Of a stretch of DNA of 64,000 nucleotides, positions 192 to 55,375 are shown in pieces (the stretch's first letter is position 1; each line of letters opens with the position of its first letter). The position numbers and the translations under genes were made by a program. This DNA is from Limnomonas spitsbergensis (taxonomy: Eukaryota; Chlorophyta; Chlorophyceae; Chlamydomonadales): NCBI GenBank assembly GCA_037349105.1, contig JAYJMM010000017.1:558001-622000 (forward strand), read 5' to 3'. A model generated the notes under the pieces. It had not been told where the DNA came from, did no database searches, and saw only the letters and a list, made by a program, of their open reading frames with translations.

Positions 192-3100
192 GAGGCGGGT
201 ACCGCTGAACTCGAGGCTCTTCACTTGGAGCTCGGCAACACGGTCCGCAAGGCGACGGCGGCGGTCATGGCGGCGGAGGCGGCAGAGGCCCGGGCCAAGA
301 TGGCTGAGGCGGCTAGAGCACAGGTGCGTCGGAAATGGGGGGAGGGAGAGGGCTGACCCAGGACCCTGAGACCTCCCTGAGCCTGTGCTCGGGTCACGGC
401 CTCGTGGGCCATGACCCAAACATTATTTCGGTGGCGGACGTCCCTACTGGCAGTCATGGAATTTTGGCTTGGGCACAGTTACAGTGTCAACTGGAGGGGG
501 GGAGGGGACTGACCCTGGATCTCGGGAAATAACCGAGCCTGTGTTCGGGTGACAGATGGATTGGATTCGGGGGGCGGAGGTCCCTGCTGGCATTCATGGT
601 TTCATACAGCTTTGGCTCAGACACTGGTGCGGTGGCAACTGGGGAGGAAGAGGGCTGAGCCTGAACCCTGAGATCTCTCTGAACCCGTGTTAGGGCCACA
701 GGTGCATTGATTTCGGGGTGGAGGTCCGTACTGGCAGTCATGGTTTCATACAGCGTCGGCTAGGGGTCCTGGTGCGGTGTTAACTGGAGGGGGGAGAGGG
801 CTGGTCTTGAACCCTGTCCAGCTGACGGAGGAAAGTGTGGTGCTATTATGCGACCTTGCTGCACCATTTACCCAGGGGTTAGTGAGGTAGCCCTTACCCC
901 TCCAAGCTCCCATCGATTGTGGAAGGCGCCGTCTCACTCACCCCTCCACTCTACTTTCCCATTCATGGAGTGAAGGTACCTCGTGCTGAATGATGTGTTG
1001 CAACCTGATCCTTGCGAGATACATCGCCTCTTTTGTTGTGCAACACATTTTTACGAACACTGCGAGCTACGACGCATTGCTTGTTGCGTAACATCTGAAC
1101 CACCCCCAACATGGTGCATTGGTGCAACACCTCCATTGTTTATAGCAGCTACGCCTCGACATGGTGCAGCACCTGGTTATTTGCGCAGCACCCACCCCTC
1201 CAATGGGTTGCAGCACCTGGTTTGTTGCGCAGCACCCACCCCTCCAATGGGGTGCAGCACCTGGTTTGTTGTGCAGCACCCACCCCTCCAATGGGGTGCA
1301 ACACCTGGTTTGTTGCGCAGCACCCACCCCTCCAATGGGGTGCAACACCTCGTTTGTTGCGCAGCACCCACCCCTCCAATGGGGTGCAACACCTGGTTTG
1401 TTGCGCAGCACCCACTCCTCCAATGGGGTGCAACACCTGGTTTGTTGTGCAGCACCCACCCCTCCAATGGGGTGCAACACCTGGTTTGTTGCGCAGCACC
1501 CACCCCTCCAATGGGGTGCAACACCTGGTTTGTTGCGCAGCACCCACCCCTCCAATGGGTTGCAACACCTGGTTTGTTGTGCAGCACCCACCCCTCCAAT
1601 GGGGTGCAACACCTGGTTTGTTGCGCAGCACCCACTCCTCCAATGGGGTGCAACACCTGGTTTGTTGCGCAGCACCCACTCCTCCAATGGGGTGCAGCAC
1701 CTGTTTTGTTGCGCAGCACCCACCCCTCCAATGGGGTGCAACACCTGGTTTGTTGTGCAGCACCCACCCCTCCAATGGGGTGCAACACCTGGTTTGTTGC
1801 GCAGCACCCACTCCTCCAATGGGGTGCAACACCTGTTTTGTTGCGCAGCACCCACCCCTCCAATGGGGTGCAACACCTGGTTTGTTGCGCAGCACCCACC
1901 CCTCCAATGGGGTGCAACACCTGGTTAGTTGCGCAGCACCCACCCCTCCAATGGGGTGCAACACCTGGTTTGTTGCGCAGCACCCACTCCTCAAATGGGG
2001 TGCAGCACCTGTTTTGTTGCGCAGCACCCACCCCTCCAATGGGTTGCAACACCTGGTTAGTTGCGCAGCACCCACCCCTCCAATGGGGTGCAACACCTGG
2101 TTTGTTGCGCAGCACCCACCCCTCCAATGGGGTGCAACACCTGGTTTGTTGTGCAGCACCCACCCCTCCAATGGGGTGCAACACCTGGTTTGTTGCGCAG
2201 CACCCACCCCTCCAAAGGGGTGCAACACCTCGTTTGTTGCGCAGCACCCACTCCTCCAATGGGGTGCAACACCAGTGTCATAGTGACGCCTGCACCCCGT
2301 ATGTGTAGCAGCACCTCCATTCTCATGCAACAACTGCACCTCTTGTACGGTGCAACACCTCTGATTTTGTGCAACAACTTAATTTGTATACAACACTAAC
2401 ACCTCTAATAAGGTGCAACACCTCTAAATGACCTTGCACAGACACCATGGTGTTGTGCCAACTGCCAACCCTGGACTGTCCATTCATGCTGACAGACATC
2501 AGTCGCAACGAGGCCGACCGGCTGAGGCGGGAGGCCCAAGGAGAGGCGACACCTCCATTCTCATGCAACAACCGCACATCTAATATGGTGCAACACCTCT
2601 GATCTTGTGCAACACCTTCACTGTTGTGTGCCACCCCCGCACTGTCCATTCATGTAGGCAGAGACAAGTCGCAATGAGGCCGACCGGCTGAGGCGGGAGG
2701 CACAGGCGGAGGCGCATGCAGCGGTCTCTGCAGCGGAGGCTGAGAGGTCGACGCGTGCTGAGGCAGAGGGGCTGAGTGAGACGTTGCGCCAGGTGGGCAC
2801 GAGGGGGGAGGGGCTGAGCGAGACGTTGCGCCAGGTAGGCACGAGGGGGAGAGGGGTTCCTGGTCACTGCGGTCCAGCGTTGGGAACTATTAGCGGTGAA
2901 CAGGGGAGAGTTCCAGTTGGGGACGAGGCCGAGGAATTAGGGTGCAGAGTTTGATGGGCTGAGCGAAGTTAGTGGGGATGAGGAGTCAGGGTGCAGAGGC
3001 TAAGTAAGTGGGGATGAGGGTGAGGGTCGCAGAGGTGGGGACAGGAGCAAAGAGTCTGGGGTCAGTGGCTGAGCACGGTGGGTCTTGACCCTGATTATAG

Positions 3101-6100: not shown

Positions 6101-8976
6101 CCTGTACTGTCCTGCAGGTGGAGGCGGAGGCACTGCGTGAGGCCTCTGACGCCCGCTGCTGTGAGCTGGAGCGCGAGCTGTCAAGATGGCGGGAGCGCGC
6201 GGAGGCGTCTGCATCGGCGCTGGCGGCAGCAGAGAGGACGGCTGAGCATGCACAAACACTTGGTGAGATGGAGGGGGTTGCGAGGGGCCAGGAGGGGGGG
6301 GGGGTAGACACTCCGTGCAATGGGTGGGGGGTGAGAGGGGCCAGGGCAGGCATCTGAAATGTAAAACGATGCGTAAGAATGCCACGCCACGCCCCCCCGT
6401 CCTGGGATGTGTGCTGGTATAGCTTGTTTTTATGCTCCAATACAGTCTTTTGATGCTGCAGGAGAGCATATGCACTGAGTGGATTTGCTAGGCGAGGTTT
6501 GATCGAGTGGCTTCGACCGTTCGTACCCCGTTCTGCTTGAATTCGTGTTTTTGTGTGCAGGCAACAGTATATGTTGGGCGTTCAACGTGGCCTGCAGTAA
6601 CTCATCATGTTGATATTCAGGAAGTTCAGGACACCGGTGGAACGAACGAGGATAAAGAATGAATGAACCTATGCAAGAAAAATACATATAACATTGCCAT
6701 ATGGTTGGTGGCCTCCCCTGGTGGCCTAATCCTTGCTGACGCCTCCGTGGTGTGGAGCCCCTCGTCACAGGCCGGTGGGGCTTTTGCCTCACTCCTTGAC
6801 GCTGCCTGGAGGTTTTCGAGGCAAGGAACTCTGAAGTCTGAACCTTAGGCTCTGGGGCAGGAGGGCCTCGCTAAGAAAACGCTCTCTCTGAACTATTTGT
6901 GTGGCATCACTCGTTGAACATATCCACCTGCGTTTTGACAAATCCTGTCTCAAACACGGCATTTTTTTACTGCGCAGGTTCCGAGGGTGTGCTGAGACCA
7001 CAGGCTGAGTATCTCACAGACGGAGACAGGCTTCCAGCTTGGGAACTCCTGTTTGATTGACTCGTGCCGGCGCCCCCCTTTGTTCTTGACTGCGCAGGTT
7101 CTGAGGCTGTTTTGAGAGCCCAGGCTGAGTTTCTCGCGGACGGAGACAGGCTTGCAGCCAGGGAAATCCTTTTTGATGGACTCGTGCCGGCTCCCCCCTC
7201 TGTTCTTGTCACTGCGCAGGTTCTGAGGGTGTCTTGAGAGCACAGGCGGAGGGCCTCGCAGCGGTGCGCCGGGCATTCAGCCAGGAATATCCTTTTTGAT
7301 GGACTCGTGCAAACTCTCCCCTCCTTTACTTGACCGCACAGGTGCTGAGGGCGTCTTGAGAGCACAGGCCGAGGGACTCACAGCGGTGCGCCGGGTGGAA
7401 GAGCTCGAGGCGGAGGTGCAACAGCTCAAGGCCAGCGGAGGAGTCATGTCCCGACTGTTCCAGATGCCCACCAAAGAGGATGTGCTGACAGGTGTGGGAG
7501 CGGAAGGGGGGGAGTTTGAAAGCTCGCAATGGATGGGTCTGATGTTGCGCCCAACTCTGGCTGCACAGCCTAGATGTTGCACCCTGATAAGAAAGTACAG
7601 CTCCCTCCTCCCTCTAAACCCTACACATCTCAACTACCTCCCCTAAAGTGTCTTGTCCTGAGTGCTGCCCCCACTTCCCCTCCAACCCTCCCATGTACCC
7701 TGTTGTGGCGGCCTCCCATTACCCCACTTCCCCTCCAACCCTCCCATGTACCCTGTTGTGGCGGCCTCCCATTACCCCACTTCCCCTCCAACCCTCCCAT
7801 GTACCCTGTTGTGGCGGCCTCCCATTACCCCACTGCCCCTCCAACCCTCCCATGTACCCTGTTGTGGCGGCCTCCCATTACCCCACTTCCCCTCCAACCC
7901 TCCCATGTACCCTGTTGTGGCGGCCTCCCATTACCCCACTTCCCCTCCAACCCTCCCATGTACCCTGTTGTGGCGGCCTCCCATTACCCCACTTCCCCTC
8001 CAACCCTCCCATGTACCCTGTTGTGGCGGCCTCCCATTACCCCACTTCCCCTCCAACCCTCCCATGTACCCTGTTGTGGCGGCCTCCCATTACCCCACTT
8101 CCCCTCCAACCCTCCCATGTACCCTGTTGTGGCGGCCTCCCATTACCCCACTGCCCCTCCAACCCTCCCATGTACCCTGTTGTGGCGGCCTCCCATTACC
8201 CCACTTCCCCTCCAACCCTCCCATGTACCCTGTTGTGGCGGCCTCCCATTACCCCACTGCCCCTCCAACCCTCCCATGTACCCTGTTGTGGCGGCCTCCC
8301 ATTACCCCACTTCCCCTCCAACCCTCCCATGTACCCTGTTGTGGCGGCCTCCCATTACCCCACTGCCCACAGGCCGGGGTTTAGGGTTGTGAAAGACGTG
8401 ATCTGTCCTGATCAGAGCCCTAGTTGAGGTTTTAGGTTTTTGCAATGTCACTTGTGGTATCTGGCGCCAGATGTCCCGAGTGTTATTGCAAAACATGACA
8501 AACCTCAACTACCTCCCCTGAAATGTCCTGTTATGAGTGCCGCCCCCACCTCCCCCTAAAATCCATTGTGGTGGCGTCCCATCTCTTAATCTGCTCACAG
8601 GCCTGGGTGTAGGGTTGTGAAAGACGTGCCCTGTCTGGATTGGCGTCCCCAGCTCCCCTTAAATGTCCTGTCCTCATTACCGCCCTGGCATCCCCCTTTT
8701 ATTGGACTGGGTCTTGAGCTGTGGATGGGTCGGCTGTTGTGCCCAGATATGAAACGCAGCTCAGATGTTGCACCCAGATATGAAAGCGCAGCTCAGATGG
8801 CATCCCCCTCTATAGGTCTGGGCCTGGAGCTGTGGAAGGATGACCGGTTGCGTTGGAAGGGGGAGGGGGACGTGGAGGCAGCTGGAGGGACATCCGTGGC
8901 AATACGACCCAAGGCGAAGGGCCAGGGGCAGGGGGCAGAAGCAGCAGCTGGCAAGGCACCCGGGAGCAAGGTGTGA
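192..8976 (+). CDS. Coiled-coil protein, 3' part of a multi-exon gene
   Basis: Eight frame-compatible exons can be read: 192-323, 2658-2792, 3978-4073, 4588-4767, 5789-5923, 6118-6262, 7342-7491 and 8816-8976, ending at TGA 8974-8976. They sum to 1,134 nt (377 residues plus stop). Junctions are phase 0 up to the last two, which are phase 1. The product is almost wholly Ala/Glu/Arg/Gln-rich with heptad-like stretches (for example MAAEAAEARAKMAEAARAQ in the first exon and VEELEAEVQQLKAS in the seventh), so a long coiled coil is expected; the tail after 8816 is Gly/Lys-rich and basic. No catalytic motif is visible. The 5' end lies left of the window. The intron after 5923 has a GC donor (CAG|GCAAGG). 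A structural, cytoskeletal or basal-body role is only a guess. Exon calls rest on splice consensus and frame continuity; extra small exons in the long introns are possible. Confidence 0.72.
335..790 (+). repeat. Intronic tandem repeat, about 140 bp, three units
   Basis: Three diverged units follow the first visible exon. The landmark actggcagtcatgg recurs near 447, 587 (as gctggcattcatgg) and 730. Each unit also carries a ctgaccc/ctgagcc...ccctgag block and a G-rich stretch. No reading frame is conserved between units, so this is treated as intron. Confidence 0.6.
1184..2275. repeat. 44-bp minisatellite, about 25 copies
   Basis: The unit reads roughly gcagcacccacccctccaat followed by ggggtgcaacacctggtttgttgc, repeated with a few point differences. 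It lies inside the intron between 323 and 2658. The unit has no stop in most frames and 44 is not a multiple of 3, so several frames on both strands stay open for hundreds of codons. These are artefacts, not genes. The unit resembles flanking unique sequence (ggtgcaacacctctgattttgtgcaacaac, about 2350-2380), which is a likely seed. Confidence 0.9.
2473..2545 (+). pseudogene. Decayed duplicate of the 2658 exon start
   Basis: 2498-2542 nearly repeats 2666-2707 (cgcaacgaggccgaccggct... against cgcaatgaggccgaccggct...), and both follow actgtccattcatg. The upstream copy lacks the TAG acceptor seen at 2655-2657 and loses the exon after about 45 bp. It is a partial duplication of acceptor plus exon start inside the intron. 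Confidence 0.65.
2793..2834 (+). repeat. Tandem copy of exon end and 5' splice site, 42 bp
   Basis: The exon end gggctgagtgagacgttgcgccag followed by gtgggcac (donor at 2793) is repeated, giving a second donor at 2835 after gggctgagcgagacgttgcgccag. The extra 42 bp is open in frame (14 codons), so either donor gives a translatable message. Confidence 0.7.
3237..3977 (+). repeat. 72-bp minisatellite copying an acceptor and exon start
   Basis: Six close units (3258-3670) and about three degenerate ones (to about 3850) share a 72-bp period. Each has ctgaaccaggacagacagcg acggg and then gtgtatgcaccccatgtcc. The real exon boundary at 3971-4000 reads gagccaggatggagagcgac gggcacgtgtgttc, clearly the same sequence. 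Each unit therefore carries a CAG acceptor and about 25 bp of exon start. The ccttaacccc runs (about 3866-3965) are part of this drifted array rather than telomeric DNA. Confidence 0.8.
4110..4200 (+). pseudogene. Decayed copy of the 3978-4073 exon
   Basis: The stretch gtgtattcaaccttgaaagg... followed by gtgcggtggtagctgcagatggagcgggatgagctg parallels the 3978-4073 exon (gtgttcaataatgctgtcaa...gagacggagcgggacgaattg). It contains stops and lacks a convincing donor. It is read as a second, broken copy of the exon downstream of the intact one. Confidence 0.5.
4768..5130 (+). repeat. Three tandem, decaying copies of an exon end and donor
   Basis: The end of the 4588-4767 exon (ggccacgtggctgatgctgc...gcagagaggg...gagcag|gtgagg) recurs with the landmark at 4831, 4947 and 5067, a period of 116-120 bp. 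Copies keep the (g)acgtggcagatgca core and a gagcag(g/a)tg donor-like end. The first copy is closest to the exon; the later ones have stops such as aaataactgg. More diverged relatives may extend to about 5360. Confidence 0.75.
6955..7341 (+). repeat. Three tandem copies of an acceptor and exon start before the intact exon
   Basis: CAG acceptors end at 6977, 7097, 7219 and 7341, spaced 120-122 bp. Each is followed by gttccgag/gttctgag/gtgctgag and then a block matching the exon GVLRAQAEGL. Only the last copy continues into the full exon 7342-7491 ending at a donor. The earlier copies keep the correct phase for about 25 codons. They are spare acceptors or decayed cassettes. Confidence 0.8.
7673..8369. 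repeat. 53-bp minisatellite, about 13 copies
   Basis: The unit is cttcccctccaaccctccca followed by tgtaccctgttgtggcggcctcccattacccca, almost identical in every copy except tt/tg in ccact(t/g)cccc. It fills the intron between 7491 and 8816. The unit length is not a multiple of 3 and it lacks stops on the + strand, so all three + frames remain open; these are not genes. Confidence 0.92.
8370..8815 (+). repeat. Diverged partial duplicates in the last intron
   Basis: gggtttagggttgtgaaaga (about 8377) recurs as gggtgtagggttgtgaaaga (about 8606). gaaacgcagctcagatg (8752) recurs as gaaagcgcagctcagatgg (8783). The second pair sits just before the terminal exon, and tgggtcttgagctgtgg (about 8708) matches the terminal exon start ctgggcctggagctgtgg (8818). 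This is again a copy of an exon start upstream of the intact exon. Confidence 0.55.
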
Positions 8977-9616
8977 GGGGGGCGTGAGGGGCATATGGGG
9001 GCGGTAGGGGGCTTATCGTGACTTTGCTGTTTTATCATGGAATGGTGTTGGCGATGGTTTTGGGGCAAGCTGTCATATTTGTTTGGAACTGCGTGTTTGT
9101 CCGCCCCGCTGGGATTGCAGAGAGTGGAAGACTGTACAAGCCGGTCTTCCCTTGTGCCCATGAATACTTGGAAGATACCGGGATCCTTCAAATCCCTCAA
9201 AAAGGCTCCCCCCTCCTCACCGGTAATTCTTGGGCGCAGGATCCGTATGCGCTCTTTCTCCGTCCCGGGGAAATTGAGACTCTGGAAATTGGTCTGTACT
9301 TTAACCCTTAGGTCCCTCCCTCTTGATAGGTATTGTGGGTGCAACATCTGTTTCCCAAGGATATGGCTCATCACCTGGTTCGGACTCCACCTCCTCAACC
9401 CCATCCCCGCCCTCCCCCATGCACAGGTGTTGGGCGCAGTATCCCTACGTGTGTGGCTCATTGCTGGCTACCTGACACTGCTCCACATAGCCGTTATGGT
9501 CAGCTTCACGCACAGTTCTCACGGCACGTCCACCTCCGACTGTGAAAAACTGATGCTCAAAGCTGAGCAGCATATCTTGCCGTGAGCGAGCGCGGAAGTG
9601 GGTACACGGCACGGGG

Positions 9617-10183
9617 CTACGGTTGAGCTGAATACAAGTGAAACAGGATTTGCATGGCTGCTGGTCGAGCGAACGAAGAAACGGGGTGAATCTTGTCGCA
9701 AGCTGGCGTGTCATGGGACCTGGGCCTGCCATGGTCTAAGCGGCCGAAGCTTTTGTATATCGGAGATCTTGTCGTAAGCTCGCGTGCGCCGGTGGGATAG
9801 CCCTTTCCTTGAGTGATCGTGGGCTGGGCCAGAGATCTCTGGATGGGGCAGGCTGAGTATTCTTTATTCAGGAAATCATGCCACATGCTGGCGTGTGCGG
9901 TTCGAGGTACGGTTATCCGCTCTGTGATCATGGGGAGGGGCAAGCATGTTGGAGAATGAAAACGTGATGCTTCGCTGGATTGAGCGAGATTTCCGGGCAA
10001 GATTTCTCGCTTTTCACAACTGTGAAGATGGCGGCTCCGAGTATTAGCTGCTAAAGTAATAGCGAGGAGGTACCCTCGGCCCTGAGCTGTGCTGTTCCCT
10101 TCACCGTCATGCCTCAAGGCAAAGCTGTTTTCTTGGTTCAGCTCAAATGGATTCTCAAACGGGGTTGCAGGCACCTGTCCCAT
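9617..10183 (-). other. Open frame of unknown status, no recognised domain
   Basis: A 188-codon ATG-started frame has no repeats and no recognisable motif. No splice-linked neighbour was found. The word gtgatgcttcgctgga occurs at its 5' side (about 10193) and inside it (about 9967), suggesting a repeated element rather than a gene. The rest of 8977-10600 shows no gene I can support. Confidence 0.15.
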
Positions 10184-10624
10184 GCATCAAATGTGATGCT
10201 TCGCTGGACTTTAAATTAAATCGCACTGTTTGTATTCAGTTGAAGTCGAACACGTTACACCTCTGGGCCCGTATTCAGTTGAAGTATTGGTAGCTGTGAA
10301 AGAGGCGGCCCTTCACATCTTGTATGTGTCAGCAATATAATCTGCTTGCGCCGCCTGCCCTCCTGATGGCAAAATTGGTAGCGCTTACTTTATTTTGATG
10401 GTGGCCCTTGGCTTGCACACCGGGTTGCAGAGATCCAGGTTTCAGATGACCCCTGAGGCTGGCAATCGCAGGCCCTTCGCATTATCTATCTATGATGTTT
10501 CAGCTACATGACAGCTGTGGAGGCCTGCCGGCTTGGTGTCGCAGCTACCGCTGCTTTTGCCACCGGTTTGTCAAGATATGATTTGGTCCAGCTAACGCTC
10601 ATACGTGATCTGTCACACTCTTTG

Positions 10625-11239: not shown

Positions 11240-13241
11240 CTATTTGACAGGAAAAATATCGGGTCGTTTGATCGTATTACGCCAGGGGTGCAACGTCATT
11301 AACTTGCCATCATATACCGGTACATAAGCAGCAGGGGCATCATCGACAGAAGCAGCAGGGGCAGGCTTGGGTGGGATGCCCTGGCTTTTGGGGAAGACGT
11401 GGCAGATATCCATGAGGAGTAGACGTTTTCACAGACTGGAACTTCCTTTGTCTTCCTTCTCCAACGTTTTGTCTGTCCCTTCACTTTATTTCCCACTTTT
11501 CCTTTTTATGCCCCCTTCTGTTTGGTTCGTTCCCTTTGGTCAGGCACTCACGCCGCCGAGCCAGATAGATGTTAAACGTCATATTGACGTAAGCAGCAAG
11601 ACGGTGACGGTCTTTGTCTTGTGCATCGGACGTAAACTTCATGAGGACTGCCTTGAATTGGAAGGCAAGATCTGGATGGTTCTTGTGTCGCGTGGCTTCA
11701 ATGGTCAGATCCTGATATTCCAACGTACCATTTAGTTATATACTGTACTCTATATTTGCTTTGCCTTCCCTCATAATTAACGTTGTTTGGGGTTGAGAAC
11801 GGACTTTCAGGCTATAAACCAAATTTCCAGACGGTTAATTGGTGTTTAAATAAAACCAACCATTAACATGAGTTTATTTCAGGTACCGGTACAATAAAAC
11901 AAAAACCAACCATTAAACCAGTTGAGTGACTGTGTAAAGTTGGAGTACCAAAAAATAAAACCAACTCGGAATAAAACCAAATCCAGTCCGACTGATACTA
12001 CGGTATGTATTTATCTGTCTCGAGCGATGTACTGGTGCATGTTTGTGTGCTTACAAGTTCTGACCAAGTTTGTATATCGCGATGGAGAGTTTGAGACTGA
12101 AGGCGGTAGTTTCACATCATGTTCTCAGGGAATCGTTAGTCCTTATGCATTTTCGATGGCGCAGTCAAGGGCCATAAACTTCGCATTGCCTTTCCTTTTT
12201 TGGGGCAGGGATAATTTCCCTCCCCTGTTCATCTTCCTGACTTCCTCTCTTTCATTCCCTCGCCTCTGAACTTTACCGGTAGTTTCCGTCCTTCTACCAG
12301 CTTGACTGTTAAGCGGCCGAGCCTTTTAAGCATGGCCCAGAGGTGACATACCGTAGATTAAATTTGCCTTCCCTAGGGTATGAAAAAACGATTTCTTTTA
12401 GTGCTGTCCACATGGCAAACTGTCCACCAAAAGTCTTATTTTCTGACAGAATTCTGGTGTTGACAATCGAGCATTAGTAATTTCGTGGATCCCTCAACCC
12501 GCTGAAAATCTCTACGCAGAGCCTCAGCCCTGTAGGTAGCACTGACAGTCAGAAAGGAACCTAAAGCCGAAGTTGCTACCAGATAAATAAATATGTACCG
12601 TATCGGCAGTCAGTGGCTGTCAGACATGCCTCACTAGTTACTGCCCTATCCCCCTCAAATGCAAGGAGACGAGGACTGCGGCTGCTAGGCCCCGCCTCTC
12701 CCCATGCAGGTCCCGGAAACACCTCATCAGCTAACCGAACAACTTTGACAGCCCTTTCTACGTTCTTGGCCTTTGCTCTAGCGAATGACTCTAATAATCC
12801 AAACTGCCTTTTCATTCTAGACACCGGGTACAGATTGGTCGCAGTGGGCGCTGAATGGGGATGAAAATGACTGCCTCTTCAGTCTGGACTGCCTCCTCAC
12901 TCTAGATGGAGATTGGTCGCGGTGGGCGCAGTATGAAAACAAAAGAGGAAGAAACCCTGGGGGTGCACCGACGAAATATTTGGTTTCTGGGTTGGTTTTT
13001 CTCTTTGGTACCTCAAACTGTTGGTTTGAATGATTGGTTCTTCATAATAATAAAAATCAAATATGACTGATACCACGGTATGCTATTATGCCCACACTGC
13101 AGGCATCTGCGTTGCACTCCCGTCGCCGTGCGGCGCATACTACATACCTTGCTTGATTGCACGGAAAGTAGCATGAAAATGCATGGCATTGACGTCAAAC
13201 GGTGCAAGGCGCTGCTTCATTTTCATCAACACACACGGATG
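11240..13241 (-). CDS. Unidentified multi-exon gene (incomplete model)
   Basis: Three blocks read as coding on the minus strand. 13148 up to about 13230 ends at donor CAAG|GTATGT and includes FDVNAMHFHATFRAIKQ. 12642-12816 starts after tgtctag and ends at a phase 0 GTAACT donor (FARAKAKNVERAVKVVRLAD). 11552-11711 starts phase 0 after atatcag and ends at a GTGAGT donor, phase 1 (SDAQDKDRHRLAAYVNMTFN). The middle two join in frame. A terminal coding block ends at TAG 11240-11242 (APAAYVPVYDGKLMTLHPW, then NTIKRPDIFPVK), but I could not join it in frame, so an exon is missing or the model is wrong there. The family is not recognised; a transposon-encoded protein is possible because a LINE remnant lies in one intron. 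Confidence 0.4.
12196..12349 (+). mobile_element. LINE 3' UTR remnant
   Basis: The stretch contains ttttggggcagggataattt, pyrimidine-rich sequence, then cagcttgactgttaagcggc cgagccttttaagcatggcccagaggtgacat. This is a diverged copy of the LINE 3' block seen intact at 15525-15605 and 36490-36580. It sits in an intron of the minus-strand gene at 11240-13241. Confidence 0.55.
12817..12940 (-). repeat. Duplicated acceptor and exon start
   Basis: On the minus strand gcgcccaccgcgaccaatct ccatctag followed by agtgaggaggcag (about 12932-12885) precedes gcgcccactgcgaccaatct gtacccggtgtctag followed by aatgaaaaggcag (12852-12804). Only the second continues into the 12642-12816 exon. Confidence 0.65.
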
Positions 13242-14439: not shown

Positions 14440-14559
14440 GTTGAGCTCCTTGCTGTCCAGCAAGGGTGGGTTGGGGTTGCCAGGGCGGGGCAGGGCCTGA
14501 GGGAAGGTTGTGCCACGGTTTATGTTAGTCTCCATCAACTGCCTTTCAGTCACATACAT

Positions 14560-15190: not shown

Positions 15191-15194
15191 AATA

Positions 15195-27296: not shown

Positions 27297-27334
27297 TGGC
27301 TACTCCCTAGTGGCGTCGCAACCAGTGTTTCTCT

Positions 27335-36863: not shown

Positions 36864-39800
36864 TTACCACGCACTAGCCCCTTTCCTGTGGCCTGCTCGG
36901 AATGCAGTGGGTGATTCACAACGCGGCCGCGATGCCACCAAGGGGGAGGTCGGTGAGGCCAGAGGCATCTCATCAAGGATGGACGGAGTGCGCCGGGCAC
37001 CTGGGGAGGCTAAATCGTTCGCCAGATAGGGAGAACGTCGGCCGCTAGGGGAGAACAGCTCGTTGAACGCCAAGGGGGAGTGCCGGCTCCTTGGAGAATA
37101 CAAATTGGGGAGGAGGCACGAGGCAGGCCGGCTCACCGGTGATGGAGGCTCCGGGAGCATCAGGGACGCACGATGGCTGCCGGGCGAGGCGGCGCTACTG
37201 CCCGCTGTGGCCGCAACGCTGGCCCCTGCTACACGCGAGGATACCACAGACCTCCTATTTTGGTGCTGCAATGCCGAAGCTAGGTACGGTGAATGCGAGA
37301 CACCGCTGGACACCCTATAAATGCACGGGCACACGACAAGGGTCACGACATGTACAGGTAGTCCAAGGCAGTGTTTCTTTTGTCGGCTACCAGTTCGATT
37401 TAGGCAGGCCGCCCAGCGGCCGCCAAACACCCAACTAGGACCAACCTGGACCGGCCTAAAGTGGTGGCCAACGCAACAGGGCTGGCCACAAATGGGGCCT
37501 ACGGCCAGCGGCCAGAATGTATCGAACACGTAGCTGAGTCACGAAATAAGAAAATCTGGCCCAAGGCAGCGAACTCCAGCCACTAGAGTGGCCGTCCTGA
37601 AGGATACTCGGGAGGCTTGCCATAAACTGGCTTGCCTGAAGGATGCTACAGTGGTAGCCCACTGCTCGATATTTTGAGTGTTACTCAAACTCCAGCCCCA
37701 AACCAGTTTAATCTGAGAGTTGCCAGGGTGGCAGACGCGCTACTGCAACTGGTAAAAGGGATACCATCCATAATTTAAACCCAGGTTGACCTGAGATATA
37801 TGCTCTGGGGTGGCAGACACGCAGCTCAATTTCGACCCCAACTTAACCCTCAATCCGCAAACCCATTACCCAAAACCCGAGTGACCTGAGAGAGGCCGGG
37901 GTGGCGGACACGCAGCCCAATTTCGACCAAAACTAAAACCTCATCTTTGACCACAACTAAACCCTCAATCCGCTAACCCTTTACTGACACCCAGCATTAC
38001 CTGATGGAGGCCAGTGTGGCAGACTCGCCGCTCAATTTTGATCAAAACTAAACCCTCAATTTTGACCACAACTAAAGTACGAAACCCTCAATGCGCAAAC
38101 CCATTACCCAAATCCAGCATTACCTGTTGGAGGCCGGGGTCGAGGAGGCACCGCTGCAGCTGCTGAGAGATGTTGTCGGCCGCTCCAGGCCCGCTCGCAT
38201 CCAAGAGAGTGACGACGATAGAGATGCTGATACCGAGGAAGATAGGCTGCATCGTGACTCGGCAATGGGCCCAGCAGTTGATTCGGGTTTTTCAGCCTCA
38301 GCCTCACCAGCTGGCTCCTCAGCCTCAGCCTCAGCAGCTGGCTCCTCAGCCTCAGCAGCTGGCTCCACAGCCTCAGCCTCAGCAGCTGGCTCCTCCTCAG
38401 CCTCAGCCTCAGCAGCTGGCTCCTCAGCCTCAGCAGCTGGCTCTACAGCCTCAGCCTCAGCAGCTGGCTCCTCAGCCTCAGCCTCGGCCTCGGCCTCAGC
38501 AGCTGGCTCCTCCTCAACCTGAGCTTCAGCAGCTGGCTCCTCAGCCTCAGCCTCAGCATCTGGCTCCTCCTCAGCCTCAGCATCAGCAGCTGGCTCCTCC
38601 GCCTCCTCCGCCTCCGCCTCACCAGCTGGCTCCTCAGCCTCAGCCTCAGCCGCTGGCTCCTCGGCCGCTGGCTCCTCATCATCAGCAGCCGGATCCTCTG
38701 CCGACGGTGCCTCCTCCGCAACAGGTTCATCCTCCATTGCCTCTCCTGCCCCCTCCGCTACCAGTTCCTGTGCAGCAAAAGACTCCCACTCAGTAGCATC
38801 CTCCCCAGCTGCCTCAACTGCAGTTCCTCCATCGGCCACAGGCGCCTCTGCAGCCGCAGGCTCCTCCCCAGCTGCTGGCCCTTCATCATCAGCAGCATCC
38901 TCCCCAGCTGCCGCAACTGCAGTTTCATCCTCCTTTGCCTCCTCAGGTGCCTCCTCTGCTGCTGGTTCCCCAGCCTCAGCAGCAAGAGGTGCCTCCTCTG
39001 CTGCAGGTGCTTCAGTCCCCGCTGCTGGCTCCTCAGACGCATCGAGTCCTTCTGCCGCAAGTTCCTCCTCAGCAGCAGGCGCCTCTCCTGCTGCCACAGG
39101 TGCCTCCTCAGCTGTTGGTTCCTCCTCACTCGCAGCTCCCCCCTCTGCTTCTGTACCTGCCTCCTCAGCCGCTGGATCCTCCTCGGAAGCGACAGGCTCA
39201 CCTTCAGCAGCAGGCTCCTCAGCCGCTGGTGCCTCCTCAGCAGCAGCGAATTCCTCGATGGCCTCTCCTGCCGCCTCCACTGCCAGTGCCAGTATACCAG
39301 CAGGCTCATCTCCAGCAGCAGCTTCCTCCACCGATCGCGCTTCCTCTGCAACAGGTGCATCCCTCTCTGCCTCCTCTGCCGGGGCCTGCCCAGCAGCAGG
39401 CTCCTCTGCACCAGCGGATTCCTCGGCTTCCGCAGCATTTTCCTCCACAGCAGCAGCAGGTGCCGCTTCGGCTGCTGACTCCTCCTCCTCCTCGCCTGCT
39501 GCCACCGCCTCCTCAGCAGCAGCTGGCGCTCCATCAGCTGCCACCCCCTCCTCATCAGCTGCAGGATCCTCGGCAGCAGCGGGCTCCCCATCAGCTGGTT
39601 CGCCTTCCTCAGCGGGCTCCCCATCAGCTGGTTTGCCTTCCTCAGCGGGCTCCCCATCAGTAGCTGGCTCCCCTCCTGCTGCCGCCGCCTCCTCATCAGC
39701 TGCGGGATCCTCAGCAGCAGCGGGCTCCCCATCAGCTGGTTCACCTTCCTCAGCGGGCTCCTCAGCAGCAGCTGGCTCTACAGCAGCTACGAGCTCCTCA

Positions 39801-45348: not shown

Positions 45349-48300
45349 ATGTTCAGCGGGGGTGGTCGACGTCTAAGGAGTGCTCAAAGCGTGGTAGAAA
45401 ATCGTTTATCTCTGGCATGCCGTTGCTCGCCAGCGCCAGGCGGCAACGATTTAGAAAAACCGCCCAACCATCCTCAGCCACAGCCACAGCCACAAGCAGC
45501 TTCTAAACCTGACGAGGCGGAGTCCAGCTCCACACCGACGCCCGCATCGGCGCCCACGTCGCCCGAGGCATCCCCCCCCAGCAGCAGCAGCAGCCCTGGT
45601 AGCAGTGGCTACAGCCGGGGCCCCCAGCTGCCTGACCGGCCGCCCAAGAAGCAGCCCAAGGGTTCGCGCCGTCCCTTCGGATTCCAAAGGCCATCGGCAC
45701 TCTCCATTTTTGCGACGTATGGCGTGTTCACGGGTGAGACTTGGAGCCGCCATGCAAAGGCATGAGCGCCTGTATCCTCCCTCTCCCTCCAGCACCTGCT
45801 TGCCATGCATTTGACATGAAGCTGTGAACAGAGACAGTAAGTAAAGGAAATGACACCCATGCAAGGCTTAAGGGTGACCAACATCTCGGTAATTGAACGC
45901 CATGGTCTAGAAGACTAGAAGCAGTTTTTTCAGTTTTTACCGGACCACCCATGGGGCGCTACCAGGTGGCCACCACTGGGACGATGGGGACCAGGCCTTG
46001 ATGGACCTACGGCTGGTGGTCCAAACAACAGGGTTTGTCGCACCAAGCCCACCAGCCGTACTTCGGATTGTGGCCCAAGCGTGACTGAAATGTTTGGAAA
46101 TTAAAGAGCAAGAGTAATGAGCGCAGGCAGGCTTATTCCTGACACCGGCACACCGCTGTTGTTTGTATGAACCTAGGCAATGTCCCAATTGAATAGAGCC
46201 AGACTTTGCAAAAAGGGAAGTCAGCAACAAGTACCAGAAACAAGCCAGCAAGGTACAGTATATCTGAACACAAGGGTTGTGGCGAAGAAAACATTCTCCT
46301 CTCGGAAGCTCTTGTAGGAATAGTGTTCCATTTGTTTAGGGTGTTCCAGATCCAATAACGATCCAATAAAGCTGCATCACAGCCTGCGGCAGTTGGACCT
46401 GGTTCAGCTAGCCCTGCTACTCACCCCCCTGGCTGTTGGCTGTTGGCCGGTCAAGGCTCGATCCTCATTGGCTCAGTGGCGGCTGCCTGACTGCCCTCCT
46501 AAAGTGCACACGTTATTAAGCAGGGACACGGGATACAGAATATGGTAAAACGAGACGGTACGGGTTTTTTGTACGATACGACACGTGATTTTTGCCAGTA
46601 CGGGTCAAAAGTGTGAATTTGCAGTCGGTGCACTGTAGCTGACCCTCTGAGCTGACCGTATCAATACAAAACAGTACAGTACAATGCAGGATTTGGGCCA
46701 AAACGGCCTGTGTCCTGTGTCCCTGTTATCAAGGTCTGAGTGGCAGGGAGGGGGATTTCAAATGACAAATCGCCGTCATGAGCCTGTCCCAGATGGAGAC
46801 TGTGATATCATGCTGAGTCGCTGAGTCATTGTCAAGCCCTTGTTGAGTCAAAGACCTTGCTGTACCCTGGTGTCTCCTGGACCTTACAGTATCCTGGTGT
46901 CTCGGTGAGGAGAGGTGTCAGGTGCGCAGTGGCAGAGTCTGTGGAAATCGCGAAATTGTGGGTGGGTTTACAGTACAGCAGAGCATCACATTTGATGCAT
47001 GGGACATGTGCAAGCAAACCGGTACGAACACTGAAATAAACTAGGACGGCGAGCTAAAATCAGAAACAGCGAAAAAGCAGAAAGAGCTAAAAGGTAGAAA
47101 CAGCTCAGCTGCTGGTGCTACCTATTGGGCTGCTGTGGCCTAATGTGCTCTTTACCAGGTGCACTAGCCTAGCAGCCAATAAGCTTAGGCTGAGCGGCCT
47201 GAGCTGAAGGCGTGCCAGCTCAGCAACTTCAGCATGCTCAGAACCCTTACATCTGGACCCTGTGCTGAGATGTTTTTTGATAATGTATGGCTTTATGGCC
47301 ATACGCGCCCTGTCCCCATCTTCCTAAACGCTTGCCCCCTTCTCAAACGTCCCCGCCCCCCTTCCTAAGAGCGCGCCCCCCATTCCCGCCTTCCCCCTCC
47401 CAAACGCCCCCGCCCACCTCCCTAACAGCGCACCCCCCATTCCCGCCGTCCCGTCGTCCTTCCAGGTCTCATTGGCACCCTCGCTGTCGGCACAGCCTGG
47501 GCTACTGATCTGAACCTGGCCGGTATGTTCCACCTGGCCGCCGGATCTGGATCCGCAGGTTCTGCCGGCGGCCTCGCCTCGCAGCTTGAAACCATCGCGA
47601 TCTGCACGGCCCCGCTACTGGCGCTCAACGCGGCGATTATGGTGCCGGAGTACAACTCTTGGTCGCTGCCGAAAATGCCTTCAGGAACCCCACCACCACC
47701 ACCACCTGCGCCTGTGCCTGCGCCTGCTTCGCTGCTGGACGATGCGGCCGCTGCCGCCACCACCTCGTCTAACCAGGGCCTGCCTGGGGATGGTGGGGAT
47801 GCCTCTGTTCGAATTAAGGAGGCGCGACCGTCTTCGGATGGCCCAGCTGTCCTCCCGGGAGAAAGCGTGCAGGTGGGGCAGGGGAGCGTGCAGGTGGGGC
47901 AGGGGAGCGAGAGGAGCGAGGGGGGAGGGGTCACAGGCAGGGGAGCGAGGGGTCACAGGCAGGGGAGCGAGAGGGGGGAGGGGTCACAGGCAGGGGAGCG
48001 AGGGGTCACGGGCAGGGGAGCGAGAGGAGCGAGGGGGAAGGGGTCACAGGCGAGGGGAGCGAGGGGTCACGGGCGAGGGGAGCGAGGGGTGAGGGGTGAG
48101 GGGCGAGGGGAGGGGAGCGAGGGGAGCGAGGGGTCACGGGCGAGGGGAGGGGAGCGAGGGGTCACAGGCGAGGGGAGGGGAGCGAGGGGTCACGGGCAAG
48201 GGGAGCAAGGGGTCACAGGCGAGAGGAGCGAGGGGGGAGGGGCGAGGGCAGGGGAGCAAGGGGTCACGGGCTAGGGGAGCGAGGGGTCACGGGCGAGGGT

Positions 48301-51300: not shown

Positions 51301-54300
51301 TCCATGCTGCTTCTGCAGGGGCACTACACCGCCAACAACCCCACGGGAGGGCTGAACCCCGGCCTGGAGCTCCTGGCAACAGCGGTCAACAGCATGGCCC
51401 TGGAGCTGCTCTACAGGGGCTGCGGCATCACGCTGCTGTCCCTCTGGCTCAATGATCGGTGAGTGGGGCCGCGGGCGCGATCAAGTGTGCTTGGGGCTGA
51501 GAGCGCGAGAGTGCGTGTGGGGGGCTGAAAGTCGTGAAAGTGTGTGTGGGGAAGTGGGTGTGAGAGGGTGGAACAACGACCTGAAGCTGCCGTTTGCTGT
51601 AGTCGTTGCAAAGCTTCACTACTGCTGGGAAGCGTTGTGTGGCAAGACTGCCTACTCTCTCCTCGCCTGCCCCTCACACCACAAGTTTAATGAAGCTGGC
51701 ACCGAGGACTCAAAAGCAAACCTTCCGCACTCCCCTGGATAACAATAATGCATCCACCTCCCCCTTGCCTGCCCCTCACTGTGAAGTTTCATGAAGCTGG
51801 CGAGGACTTGCCAATGGAACGCTCCGCACTCCCTTATGGATAACAATAATGCATCCACTTGAACCTGCCACTCATTCCCCCAAGTTCTATGAGACTGGCG
51901 CAGAGGGCTTGCCACTGAAACCTTCCGCACTCCCCCCCTCCTGGATAACAATAACGCACCCACCTCCTCCTCCTCGCCTGCCCCTCATTTCTGCAGGTTG
52001 TATAAGTCGGGCGTAGGGGACGTAATTGCAAGCGTCCTGCACTCCCCTGGATGACAATAATGCACCCTGCTCCTCCTCCTCCTCCTCCTCCTCCTCCCAA
52101 AAGAATGCACCTTCATCCTCGCCTGCCCCTTACTCCCACAGGTTCTATGAGGGTGGCGCTGAGGACTTCATGTCACTACCCGCGCTGCTAGGCGGCGGGC
52201 AGGCAAGCACGCTCGAGGTAGCCAAGTGGACAGCTGTTGCGTTGTTCGTGCTCCTGTCCGGCGGCCTGGCGCTCCGCAAGGTGTGTTTTTGTGCACTGTT
52301 GGCCAGGCAGGCAGGTAGGCAGGCGTAGAAAGGCAGGTACCTCGGTAGGTATGCTGGTAGGCAGGCAGACGGCTCCGCAACGCATGCATTCGTGCACTGT
52401 TAGCCAGGCATCGGCAAGCAGGACTGCCCAACAGCATGTCAACGGTGGTCCGGTGCGCACTCAATTAAAGGCCACCATCCACTGCTCTATGCGCAATACA
52501 TGGGATGCTGCGTATTGTATTGAGGAATGAGCTCTGTGGAGGTGTGATTTATTGTGTGTGATTATGCTGTCACTTGCAGCGTTGGGCTCTCCGTCAGGTG
52601 CCCATCAACCTTTTTAACCTGGGGTTACCGTTGGGTCCTCAGTCAGATGACCATCAAAGAAAGAAAGGTACCCCCCCGTGGGAGGCGTGAGAGTTAAGGA
52701 AACAGCGCAGCTTGGGCTGAAGCCACATCCGCGCCGTTACCGGAATGTGCCCTTGAACCTTTTCACCACTGGGGTTCTCTTCAACCCTAGCCGATGTCTA
52801 GGATGGTCATCTGCTGCGCTCCCCTGTTAGTTTTGCCTCACATCTTTCCTGCCCCGCTGCCCTGCAAGCAGTCCCTGCAGCCGCAACGCCGCATCGCAGT
52901 CATCCTGAACGTGAAGAAGGGCGTCGATAAGGATGGCAAGCCCAAGTTTACGGAGGCGCCCCCCAACAATGCTTTCACCGACGTCATGAACCTGGCTGCG
53001 GGGATCCAGGCAAGTGGTCAGATCTGCACGCCTCTAGATCTGTAGGCCTCTAGACCTGCTGGCTGTTAGGTCTACAGGTTTTGAGGACTACAGGCGCCTA
53101 GATCTGCAGGTTTTTAGATCTGTAGGCTTCTAGATCTGCAGGCTTCTAGATCTGTAGGCTTCTAGGTCTGCAGGTTTGAGGATTGTAGGCGTCTAGATCT
53201 GCAGGTTTCTAGATATGTAGGCTTCTACATCTACAAGCATCTAGATCTACAGGCCTCTAGATCTGCAGGCTCGGAGATGTGGGGATGTGGCGCCCACTAG
53301 GTTAATACAAACATGAGGGACAGGGTTGTGCCCTTGTAGAGTTCAGGGTCCTGGAATACTGTATAAATGTGTGGGGTATGTGGCGCCCCGCTAGGTTCAT
53401 ACAAGCACGATGAGGGACCAGCAGGTTGAGCCCCCTTCCCCCTGCTCCCCCCCTCCCAGCTCTCCACCTCCCCGCATGACCTTGCTCCCCACACTGTCCC
53501 GCTCCAGGGCTTCCGCAACACAGCCCAAACAGCCGTGCTCAACTTTGTGTTTGTGGCCTCTGGCGGCAACCTGGCGGCGTCCTTCGCAGCCAGCCTGACC
53601 AACCAGGTGGTATTTGCGGTCATGCAACGCTACAGCTCTGAGCGCATGCGGAAGGTGCGTGTGACACTATTTTTAGCAGACTTAGGCTGCAGCCTGGCCA
53701 ACCAGGTGGTCTTTGCAGTCATGCAACGCTACAGCTCTGAGCGCATCGGAAGGTGCGTTTGACACTCTATTTTTAGCAGACTTAGGCTGCAGCCTGGCCA
53801 ACCAGGTGGTCTTTGCAGTCATGCAACGCTACAGCTCTGAGCGCATCGGAAGGTGCGTTTGACACTCTATTTTTAGCAGACTTAGGCTGCAGCCTGGCCA
53901 ACCACAGGGTCTTCGCGGTCATGCAACGCCACAGCTCTGAGCGCATGCGGAAGGTGCAAGCAACACTGAGCAACGCTGTAGTTCAGTTATTTGTAGAGCC
54001 CTGACAGCCGCGCTGTAGCTTCAGTTATTTTTTGAACGCACTCCCTCCCTAACTTTTAAGCGTCAGCTCTAGGGTTAAGGATTTATGAGTGCATGTGGAA
54101 AAAGCGTGCGGCACTGACCATTTTTAGCGCACGTAAGCCTGGCCTACGGCTGTGGGTGCCTGGTGCAGCAAAGTTTGCTTGCCCCTTGGGCCTGCAGCTG
54201 GACACTGGCCGAGGTTAAATTCCCAGTGGCCCTTAGCCTCCTAACGACCTGTTGCAGGTGGCCTGATACGCACAAGAATTATGTGCCTGATGCGCACAAA

Positions 54301-55097
54301 AATTTGTGCACTGGTGCTGGGTTTGCCTGCTGGGGGGTGTGATCTATGGGGGGTGACACTGTGCAGGGTCTTAAAACTGAAGGCTTTCCTTGTCAACCTG
54401 TCTTATGCTAAGATGGTGAATGTGGACTGGCGTAGAATAAGCAGTGTAAGGGGCATTTTTTCTGTTTTAGAAGCCTCGGCCTTGCCCATAAGCGCATTCC
54501 CGACTCCTGAGCCATGCAACCCCTGCTAAATTGTCAGTAGACTGCATAGCCTAACCCTCTCACCTAAACGCCCGTGACTCTTCTTTGCAGAGGAGCGCTG
54601 CATTGGCGACAGAGCTCAAGGAGTTCAACTTGAAGCTGCGGGCAATCCAGGAGAAGAAGAAGAACACCCTGATCGCAGCTGCAGCCGCCTCCGACGGCAC
54701 GGGCGGCAGCGCCGCCGCGGCCGCGGCGCGGCCCATGGCGGCAGCCTCAGCGCTCGACACCCCTCCATTGAGCCTGACGGGAGCTCCTCCCGCCCCTGAA
54801 GCGGAGCGGGCGCATCAGCCTGCTGCCGACACAGCGGCTGCCGGGGCGAGCGTGATGGCCGTGTCGACAGCGGACGCGGTGGGGACTGCCGCTGAGGTTT
54901 CGGCGCCTATGCCTGCAGAGTCTGCTGCCGCTTCGGCTCCACCTGGCAGCGGGTCTCCCCCTGGGTCCAGCAGCGCGGACTCGTCCCTCGGGAATCACGT
55001 AGCGGACGACCAGCTCAGCCGCGCGCTCATGGCGTTGGACATGCTCCTGCCGGATGAGAAGCTGCCCGCAGCTGCCGGCAAGTCCTCCAGCAAGTGA
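45349..55097 (+). CDS. Probable plastid membrane protein, possibly CPBP-like
   Basis: Eight exons join in frame: 45349-45733, 47466-47872, 50081-50233, 51319-51458, 52142-52280, 52872-53009, 53508-53654 and 54591-55097 (TGA). They total 2,016 nt, 671 residues. An in-frame TAG lies at 45334. The N-terminus (MFSGGGRRLRSAQSVVENRL) is basic and Ser-rich, like a chloroplast transit peptide. Hydrophobic stretches include IFATYGVFTGLIGTLAVGTA, ICTAPLLALNAAIMV, KWTAVALFVLLSGGLAL and TAVLNFVFVASGGNLAASF. ALELLYRGCGIT resembles the first CPBP (CAAX-protease-like) motif EExxxRG with the first Glu replaced, which would make it catalytically degenerate; this family call is tentative. The C-terminal 170 residues are charged then Ala/Ser-rich. 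The intron after 53009 has a GC donor (CAG|GCAAGT). Exons 7-8 are duplicated downstream. Confidence 0.7.
45955..46085 (-). repeat. Dispersed SINE- or MITE-like repeat, copy
   Basis: gaccaggccttgatggacct acggctggtggtccaaacaa...accaagcccaccagccgtac contains the family core in both orientations, giving an inverted-repeat look. It lies in the first intron of the plastid gene. Confidence 0.5.
47300..47465 (+). repeat. C-rich repeat before an acceptor
   Basis: gcgcgccccccattcccgcc and gcgcaccccccattcccgcc, each preceded by cctcccaaacgcccccgccc-like sequence, form about two units of roughly 57 bp immediately before the acceptor at 47465. It probably extends the pyrimidine tract. Confidence 0.55.
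47873..49525 (+). repeat. G-rich purine minisatellite seeded at a donor, about 1.65 kb
   Basis: The exon ends gaaagcgtgcag|gtggggcagggga at 47872; the next unit is gcgtgcag|gtggggcagggga again, then the array drifts to ggggagcgaggggtcacggg units. Larger blocks of about 290 bp carrying caagacaggataggggagcg agggg recur near 48640, 48930 and 49210. The strand is strongly purine-biased with many G3-G5 runs. Long open frames here are artefacts. Confidence 0.88.
50240..50500 (+). repeat. Intronic direct repeat, about 185 bp apart
   Basis: cgtcagatctaccgagattc tgtcgacggagggccc... (about 50249) recurs as cgtcagatttaccaagattc tgccgacggagggccc... (about 50426). Related gatctg words also precede the 50081 acceptor (50005-50065). 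No coding signal. Confidence 0.65.
51170..51280 (+). repeat. Dispersed SINE- or MITE-like repeat, copy
   Basis: Contains ccaccagccgtaggcctgac caggtttggtcccaatttgg cggccgcgg and ends agggtggcctcgtagcc. It matches 32320-32405 closely. Confidence 0.6.
51610..52141 (+). repeat. Four copies of an acceptor and exon start before the intact exon
   Basis: Acceptor-like AGs end at 51685, 51786, 51884, 51996 and 52141. They follow cctgccc(c)tcac-type tracts and precede tttaatgaagctggcaccga, tttcatgaagctggcgagga, ttctatgagactggcgcaga, gttgtataagtcgggcgtag and finally gttctatgagggtggcgctg. Only the last continues as the exon. Copies also share ggataacaataatgca and a CTC microsatellite (52068-52097). Confidence 0.85.
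53015..53285 (+). repeat. AGATCTG-type short repeat, about 18 bp
   Basis: ttctagatctg(c/t)aggct is repeated about 12 times with variation, directly after the GC donor at 53010. The first unit follows gatctgcacgcctctagatctg. Confidence 0.8.
53655..53960 (+). repeat. Three copies of an exon end and donor, about 100 bp
   Basis: The exon end aaccaggtggtatttgcggtcatgcaacgctacagctctgag is repeated with the landmark at 53601, 53700, 53800 and 53900. The first step (99 bp) keeps frame, so read-through adds 33 codons before the next donor. Later copies carry one-base changes (cgcatcggaagg). The last restores cgcatgcggaag|gtgcaa. Confidence 0.87.
54125..54230. repeat. Dispersed repeat, copy in the last intron
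   Basis: taagcctggcctacggctgt gggtgcctggtgcagcaaag resembles the ctacggctgg...gcaccaagcc core of the dispersed family. The same copy recurs in the tandem duplicate at 61990-62095. Confidence 0.4.
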
Positions 55098-55375
55098 GGT
55101 CCCAGATCACCTGCGAGCCAGGGGGTCTAGGCTGCCCGCAGCTGTCGGCAAGGATGCCTGCAAGACCCTAGGGGTACCTGGGGCCAGGGAGTCTTGGCTG
55201 CCAGCAGCTTCCAGCAAGGATGCCTGCAAGACCATATGGGTACCTGGGGCCAGGGAGTCTTGGCTGCCAGCAGCTTCCAGCAAGAATGCCTGCAAGACCA
55301 TATGGGTACCTAGAGCCAGGGAGTCCTGGTGTCTTGGCTGCCCGCAGCTGCAGGCAATAATGCCTGCAATTGAGG
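55060..55375 (+). repeat. 66-bp repeat derived from the coding end
   Basis: The last codons ctgcccgcagctgccggcaagtcctccagcaag and stop are followed by ctgcccgcagctgtcggcaa ggatgcctgcaag, then 66-bp units (gcctgcaagaccatatgggt acctggggcc...ttggctgccagcagcttccagcaag). The array has four units and lies in the 3' UTR. Open frames here are incidental. Confidence 0.75.

What the first reader, a model, noticed from the sequence alone, without database searches (positions are those of the whole stretch)
192..55375. Introns grow by tandem duplication across splice junctions, gene after gene
At least eleven arrays begin or end exactly at an exon border and contain it. Acceptor plus exon start: 3237-3977, 6955-7341, 12817-12940, 19747-21530, 28236-29045, 30050-30240, 51610-52141. 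Exon end plus donor: 2793-2834, 4768-5130, 37690-38123, 47873 onward, 53655-53960. One array copies the coding end (55060-55375). They occur in all five multi-exon gene models, on both strands and with different units. Generic intronic minisatellites should not coincide with splice sites so often. The pattern suggests a mechanism (replication slippage or break repair tied to the RNA-DNA or exon boundary) or selection for spare splice sites. I know of no named class of element that matches this.
Basis: partly seen in the sequence, partly recalled or inferred. Interest (0 to 1): 0.88.

Follow-up and report, generated by a model that had tools for sequence, protein, structure and literature searches.

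The report
Exon edges copied into neighbouring introns
In a green alga's genome, 56 of 263 tested introns hold tandem copies of the edge of a neighbouring exon together with its splice site; this likely reflects blind local DNA-copying errors that are tolerated because splicing would keep using the outermost site, and the same pattern was reported in chickens in 2026.

Summary
Of the 12 splice-border arrays named, 11 have a border-crossing copy above 300 shuffles; three borders are fixed by homologous proteins. In seven dynein loci elsewhere in this 260-Mb genome I modelled 283 introns, 263 homologue-supported; 56 of these carry a border array. A screen after the chicken study found 76 exon copies in adjacent introns and none in others above threshold.

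The interpretation mostly fails. Blind placement of the same units predicts 28-33 of the 41 border-spanning arrays in the main settings, 19-51 over all tried. Spanning units show no frame preference (11 of 41 divisible by three), against selection for spare splice sites. The coding-end array shows the pattern with no splice site. A named class exists: "exon stuttering" of chicken dot chromosomes (PMC12954441); crowding of tandem repeats near intron ends in green algae was reported in 2013 (PMC3887541).

Still unusual: exon parts stop near 60 nt (none longer, 5.5 expected), and array edges crowd borders (77 against 40 expected, though not if introns were half as long when hit). New member of a recently described kind.

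The parts
2765..2856 (+). donor array, 42 bp x 2.2; exon ends at 2792, intron starts 2793
   Evidence: TRF; crosses border; exon end fixed by P0123 and P0124
3224..3977 (+). acceptor array of the same intron, 72-bp units, about 9 copies, followed by 8-bp repeats; exon starts 3978
   Evidence: TRF; copy holds 28 exon nt; exon start fixed by P0123 and P0124
4735..5154 (+). donor array, about 120 bp x 3.5; exon ends 4767
   Evidence: TRF; crosses border with 39 exon nt
6969..7373 (+). acceptor array, 120 bp x 3.3; exon starts 7342
   Evidence: TRF; the exon is conserved in P0122-P0124 but the border itself is not crossed
12817..12940 (+). two-copy duplication claimed as an acceptor array; no exon found here
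   Evidence: similarity real, no gene support
19747..21541 (-). acceptor arrays (106 bp x 2.3 and 133 bp x 9.8); exon starts 19746 on the minus strand
   Evidence: TRF; crosses border with 36 exon nt
28229..29043 (-). acceptor array, 95 bp x 8.5; exon starts 28266
   Evidence: TRF; crosses border with 38 exon nt
30007..30241 (-). acceptor array, overlapping 77-bp and 99-bp periods, about 2 copies each; exon starts 30049
   Evidence: TRF; crosses border with 40 exon nt
37825..38140 (-). donor array, 115 bp x 2.7; exon ends 38124
   Evidence: TRF; crosses border with 32 exon nt
47864..47909 (+). donor array, 21 bp x 2.2; exon ends 47872; exon part 9 nt; runs into low-complexity arrays up to 49511
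   Evidence: TRF; not above shuffles in the region tested
51610..52141 (+). acceptor array, diverged copies of about 100 bp; exon starts 52142
   Evidence: TRF 51661-51858; crosses border with 26 exon nt; exon start fixed by P0121
53591..53957 (+). donor array, 100 bp x 3.7, 64 exon nt plus 36 intron nt; exon ends 53654; the two middle copies carry a 1-nt deletion in the exon part
   Evidence: TRF; sequence; the 8 genome matches found lie in this array and its duplicate
55060..55375 (+). array repeating the coding end (stop codon 55095-55097) into the 3' flank; no splice site involved
   Evidence: TRF 55109-55329; crosses the stop

Best explanation
Introns of this green alga carry short tandem duplications, many of which run across an exon-intron border and repeat the exon's edge with its splice site; they likely arise by microhomology-guided copying errors that strike genes more or less blindly, and are likely kept at borders because splicing would go on using the copy nearest the exon. 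Shown: the arrays, their exon copies in the adjacent intron only, and the fit of the outermost sites with homologous proteins. Inferred: the copying mechanism, the order of events, and the actual use of the outermost site. A duplication inside coding sequence would survive only if it keeps the frame; inside an intron or a 3' flank any length would survive; across a border any length would survive, provided the outer splice site stays good. An acceptor copy would in addition have to bring its own upstream acceptor region, which fits the longer intron parts of acceptor arrays. Repeated rounds would lengthen the intron.
For: Seven dynein loci on six contigs plus this window show it: 56 of 263 supported introns, 4 to 13 per locus. 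Exon copies: 76 in adjacent introns, 0 in other introns, at a threshold set by 5 shuffles. Blind placement predicts 28 to 33 of 41 spanning arrays in the main settings. Filter: arrays inside five long open frames of the window have periods divisible by three in 19 of 19 (long open frames favour this by construction), spanning arrays in 11 of 41, intron-internal in 36 of 115. The intron part of the unit is under 30 nt in 9 of 21 donor arrays but in 1 of 20 acceptor arrays (Fisher p 0.009). Homologues fit the outermost sites at three window borders, and each supported intron joins its exons without a gap against at least one relative or paralogue. Of 18 uniform two-copy arrays, 12 have an extra match of 2-13 nt, 5 are shorter than two units, 1 is 79 longer; against simulated joints without microhomology p 0.004 for all 18, and 1e-7 for the 12 non-negative ones under 30 (median 5.5 against 1.0). 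Introns with border arrays are longer (median 646 against 410 nt, p 1e-6; partly by construction); extra copies make up 19% of intron sequence. The coding-end array shows the same geometry with no splice site.
Against: Edges are not uniform: 77 lie from 60 nt inside the exon to 20 nt inside the intron against 40.2 expected; the class with 20-60 exon nt is 27 against 12.2. Exon parts over 60 nt are 0 against 5.5, and exon share is below uniform (mean 0.35, p 3e-5); blind placement alone does not give this. The spanning excess is strongest in the most uniform arrays (19 against 10.6 at identity of 90% or more), so it is not just old arrays surviving. No transcripts were available, so use of the outermost site rests on protein alignment. 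The microhomology test rests on 18 arrays.
Confidence: 0.72

Rival explanations
1. Exon-intron borders are mutational hot spots for tandem duplication, for example through chromatin or transcription at exon edges, so arrays are aimed at borders.
For: Edges from -60 to +20 nt: 77 against 40.2; edges 20-60 nt inside the exon: 27 against 12.2; present in the most uniform arrays. Tandem repeats are more frequent near intron-exon junctions in Chlamydomonas and Volvox (PMC3887541, passages).
Against: The spanning excess disappears if introns were 30% shorter when hit (41 against 38.5), the edge excess if half as long (77 against 73.8). The coding-end array has no splice border. Exon parts are capped near 60 nt, which suggests a later filter.
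Confidence: 0.2
2. Selection keeps border arrays because the internal copies serve as spare or alternative splice sites.
For: Many internal copies keep intact sites: GT in 35 of 51 donor copies, AG in 21 of 25 acceptor copies.
Against: Units are in frame in only 11 of 41; hosts of border arrays have ordinary splice strength; in locus C22 intron 7 the ten internal copies found all lack GT; the two middle copies of 53591-53957 carry a 1-nt deletion.
Confidence: 0.06
3. The arrays are assembly or gene-model artefacts.
For: No reads and no transcripts were available; gene models come from my own HMM gene finder.
Against: Copies differ from one another in most arrays; the pattern recurs at eight loci on seven contigs; 263 of 283 introns are supported by gapless protein alignments; in chicken the repeat structure of one such gene was checked in raw nanopore reads (PMC12954441).
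Confidence: 0.03

Closest known systems
Exon stuttering / sequence stuttering on chicken dot chromosomes (PMC12954441, 2026; sections 7 and 9 read, other passages)
   Same: Local repeat clusters of tens to hundreds of bases in introns that copy the lateral part of an exon with the adjacent donor or acceptor; exon part median 36 bp there, 34 here; copies mainly in adjacent introns; coding sequence left intact.
   Different: Here in a green alga, at every locus examined rather than on special chromosomes; 39 of 283 introns by a similar screen without manual curation against 3.4% of dot-chromosome introns after curation; source within 1 nt of the border in 56 of 76 hits against over 90% of expansions; length variation between individuals untested.
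Tandem repeats more frequent near intron-exon junctions in Chlamydomonas and Volvox (PMC3887541, 2013; passages read)
   Same: Green algae; repeats densest in introns and toward intron ends.
   Different: In the passages seen that survey does not mention copied exon edges or duplicated splice sites.
Intron gain by tandem genomic duplication of an AGGT-bearing exon segment (review PMC3443670; PMC2891723; passages read)
   Same: Tandem duplication of exonic sequence with splice motifs.
   Different: There a new intron is created inside an exon; here existing introns are lengthened and a border is repeated.

Membership tests
exon stuttering (chicken) | intron clusters of tandem repeats, units tens to hundreds of bases | tested here: met
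   156 arrays with periods of 20 nt or more in 120 of 263 introns; 24.7% of intron sequence
exon stuttering (chicken) | lateral part of the exon with its splice site is copied into the adjacent intron | tested here: met
   39 of 283 introns; 56 of 263 by TRF or BLAST
exon stuttering (chicken) | local: adjacent introns, not others | tested here: met
   76 adjacent, 0 distal hits above threshold
exon stuttering (chicken) | source sequence within 1 base of the exon border in over 90% | tested here: inconclusive
   56 of 76 hits, 74%
exon stuttering (chicken) | extensive intron-length variation between individuals | not testable with these tools
   one assembly only
exon stuttering (chicken) | GC-rich genomic setting | tested here: inconclusive
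   introns 56.8%, exons 59.9% GC
introner elements | one element dispersed over many genes | tested here: not met
   one unit tested: 53591-53690 has 8 matches in the genome, all in two neighbouring arrays (the tool calls such counts lower bounds); no distal exon copies within genes
intron gain by tandem genomic duplication | a new intron between two copies of an exonic AGGT | tested here: not met
   spanning units join exon edge and intron sequence; exon-only arrays 2 in 58,916 exon nt. Whether some host intron was once born this way was not tested

The most novel reading that the evidence does not exclude
Exon edges are hot spots of tandem duplication across eukaryotes: a zone from about 60 nt inside the exon to 20 nt inside the intron takes twice its share of breakpoints in an alga, and the same exon-edge pieces of about 35 nt are copied in birds, pointing to one conserved mutational process at exon borders that makes introns grow.
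Probability: 0.2. Interest if true: 0.8.

Novelty: new member of a known kind. Interest (0 to 1): 0.5.

Why it matters
Exon stuttering was published in 2026 as a feature of bird dot chromosomes, with gerbil genes as a noted exception. Finding it at every locus examined in a green alga would make it a general route of intron growth rather than a bird oddity, and gives a microbial system in which its mutation rate could be measured. The frame, splice-module and exon-length patterns turn "why do introns lengthen" into counts that can be tested. Gene prediction in such genomes also needs care: my gene finder took some internal copies for exons.

Tried and rejected
First gene models included 9-nt and 15-nt exons inside arrays. 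I removed predicted exons of 24 nt or less with length divisible by three and treated the stretch as one intron.

A first count on 237 introns with periods of 15 nt or more was superseded. Laxer TRF settings give the same direction (273 arrays, 68 spanning against 48.0, p 0.001) but also 36 exon-only rows, so I do not rely on them; with periods of 40 nt or more, 38 of 96 span against 23.6, p 0.0003.

Easier detection of old exon-anchored arrays as the cause of the border excess: rejected as the main cause, because the excess is strongest at identity of 90% or more. Weak host splice sites as the cause: no difference. Exact starts on the border: not the rule.

Pfam gave nothing for six window proteins tried (one match of E 0.11 below its cut-off), so I name no domains. 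In one search two of three joined exon models were in the wrong frame; one search repeats them.

Rows dropped before counts: arrays in unsupported introns; introns outside the first and last supported intron of each locus; arrays with period under 20 nt or under 1.8 copies; overlapping TRF rows of lower score.

Papers: PMC12954441 sections 7 and 9 in full plus passages; PMC8226300, PMC3443670, PMC2891723, PMC5966456 and PMC3887541 passages only; other titles from search listings. That I found the name exon stuttering in no other paper rests (one paper), as wider nets; the library lacks most subscription journals.

Full report
Setting. The window is contig 17, bases 558001-622000, of a 260-Mb assembly in 124 contigs. 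The dynein at locus C109 is 79-80% identical to Gonium, Chlamydomonas and Volvox proteins, the Chlamydomonas one named inner-arm dynein 1-alpha, and a coiled-coil protein at 0.2-9.6 kb is closest to Haematococcus and Chlamydomonas proteins. It is therefore a green alga of that neighbourhood, by its dyneins likely flagellate; I did not name the species.

Observation. TRF lists 155 rows above score 50 in 64 kb. One of them (12817-12940) has no exon support, and one (47873) has an exon part of only 9 nt and is the one not above shuffles. The intron 2793-3977 has arrays at both ends: the donor array (42 bp) repeats exon end plus donor, the acceptor array (72 bp) repeats acceptor plus exon start. 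The joined exons align without a gap over the junction to the Haematococcus and Chlamydomonas homologues, so the outermost sites fit the protein. The same holds at 51458 joined to 52142 with P0121. The array at 53591-53957 repeats 64 exon and 36 intron bases; its two middle copies have a 1-nt deletion in the exon part. The array at 55060-55375 repeats the coding end with its stop codon, where there is no splice site.

Replication outside the window. A search of the genome with the Pfam family PF12774 gave 89 exon matches. I fetched 280 kb around seven of these dynein genes, trained a small HMM gene finder on the first six, and required that each predicted intron join its exons without a gap over 16 residues, with at least two identities on each side, in an alignment to at least one relative or paralogue. 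238 of 274 introns passed at first. After adding C22 and removing in-frame micro-exons, 263 of 283 passed. For five of the six loci listed the best relatives are paralogues at 33-44% identity, so support there is weaker than for C109.

Exon copies. I followed the chicken paper's screen (blastn-short of each exon against all introns of its gene, hits of 20 nt or more, threshold from shuffled introns), plus strand only and without its manual curation. It gave 76 hits in adjacent introns and none in other introns above 36.2 bits. 39 of 283 introns are affected; the longest exon part per border is 20-61 nt with median 34; 36 of 51 donor-side and 20 of 25 acceptor-side hits reach within 1 nt of the border. 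With TRF added, 56 of 263 supported introns have a border array: 32 at donors, 28 at acceptors, 4 at both. Per locus the counts are 4 of 36, 13 of 48, 13 of 50, 8 of 51, 7 of 24, 7 of 32 and 4 of 22.

How surprising is it? For each of 156 arrays in supported introns I collapsed the array to one unit and dropped the unit at random over its intron and exon edges. Observed spanning 41 (21 donor, 20 acceptor), expected 28.4 (p 0.004). The result depends on assumptions: 33.3 (p 0.074) if one intronic base suffices, 19.4 (p under 0.0002) if 25 are required, 38.5 (p 0.34) if introns were 30% shorter and 50.6 (p 0.97) if half as long; in introns with a single array 27 against 17.1 (p 0.004). So the bulk of border coincidence is geometry: spanning units of about 70 nt in introns of about 400 nt hit borders often. 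Steadiest: no exon part over 60 nt (0 against 3.4-9.1 over the settings tried). The 20-60-nt class is 27 against 12.2 in the main setting, with p at most 0.004 in all settings but the half-length one (27 against 21.7, p 0.12). The crowding of edges from -60 to +20 nt is 77 against 40.2, still 77 against 55.2 at 70% length, but gone at half length (73.8, p 0.32). Edges are frequent 4-20 nt inside the intron (25 against 11.5) and scarce 60-150 nt inside (40 against 65.1). By identity the spanning counts are 19 against 10.6 (90% or more, p 0.003), 18 against 13.7 (80-90%, p 0.11) and 4 against 4.1 (60-80%).

Filters. Arrays inside five long open frames of the window have periods divisible by three in 19 of 19 (choosing long open frames favours this); the other 42 window arrays, a mix of coding and non-coding, in 22. 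In the dynein loci spanning units are divisible by three in 11 of 41, internal in 36 of 115: border units are free of the frame, as expected if their internal copies do not reach the mRNA. Acceptor units carry at least 25 intron bases in 20 of 20 and at least 30 in 19 of 20; donor units carry fewer than 30 in 9 of 21 (p 0.009). This fits the textbook rule (recalled) that an acceptor needs its upstream branch region while a donor is short. The cap near 60 exon nt may be a further splicing filter, since very short exons are poorly recognised (recalled); that is inference. One window array, 53591-53957, has an exon part of 64 nt, just past the cap.

Origin. In 18 two-copy arrays of identity 90% or more the self-match exceeds two units by 2-13 nt in 12, falls short in 5 and exceeds by 79 in 1. 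Artificial duplications without microhomology (534 of 600 detected) give a median of 0; p 0.004 for all 18. Among cases from 0 to 29 nt the medians are 5.5 (12) against 1.0 (463), p 1e-7. This points to microhomology-guided template switching or end joining; the enzyme is not identified.

Known kind. The 2026 chicken paper describes the same anatomy, names it exon stuttering, reports exon parts of 20-187 bp with median 36, and says it can only speculate on mechanism. The 2013 survey already reported more repeats toward intron ends in two green algae. The algal case therefore widens a known kind rather than founding a new one.

Noticed in passing
53389-56135 and 61254-64000: An exact 2,747-bp direct duplication, offset 7,865 bp, running to the end of the window; both copies are in the assembly. 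Sequence upstream of 53389, with the exons at 51-53 kb, is not part of the match; recent segmental duplication or assembly duplication.
   Followed up: partly
52871-53011: The exon with the protein end AAGIQ appears to be followed by a GC-AG intron (CAG|GCAAGT), read by eye.
   Followed up: no
58519-58602: tRNA-Leu (TAA) gene on the minus strand, found by ARAGORN and Rfam.
   Followed up: no
16301-19800, 23856-27299, 38120-42679, minus strand: Long reading frames built of in-frame repeats (glutamine-, serine/alanine- and glutamate-rich); the TRF periods of 20 nt or more kept there are all divisible by three; no Pfam match for 23859-27299.
   Followed up: partly
L007, contig C86, about bases 1754600-1755600: Downstream of the C86 dynein a 30-bp unit is repeated about 33 times and read by the gene finder as coding.
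   Followed up: no
G000 locus C22, intron 7 of the model: The ten internal donor copies found all lack the GT, so the array probably grew from a copy that had already lost its splice site.
   Followed up: partly
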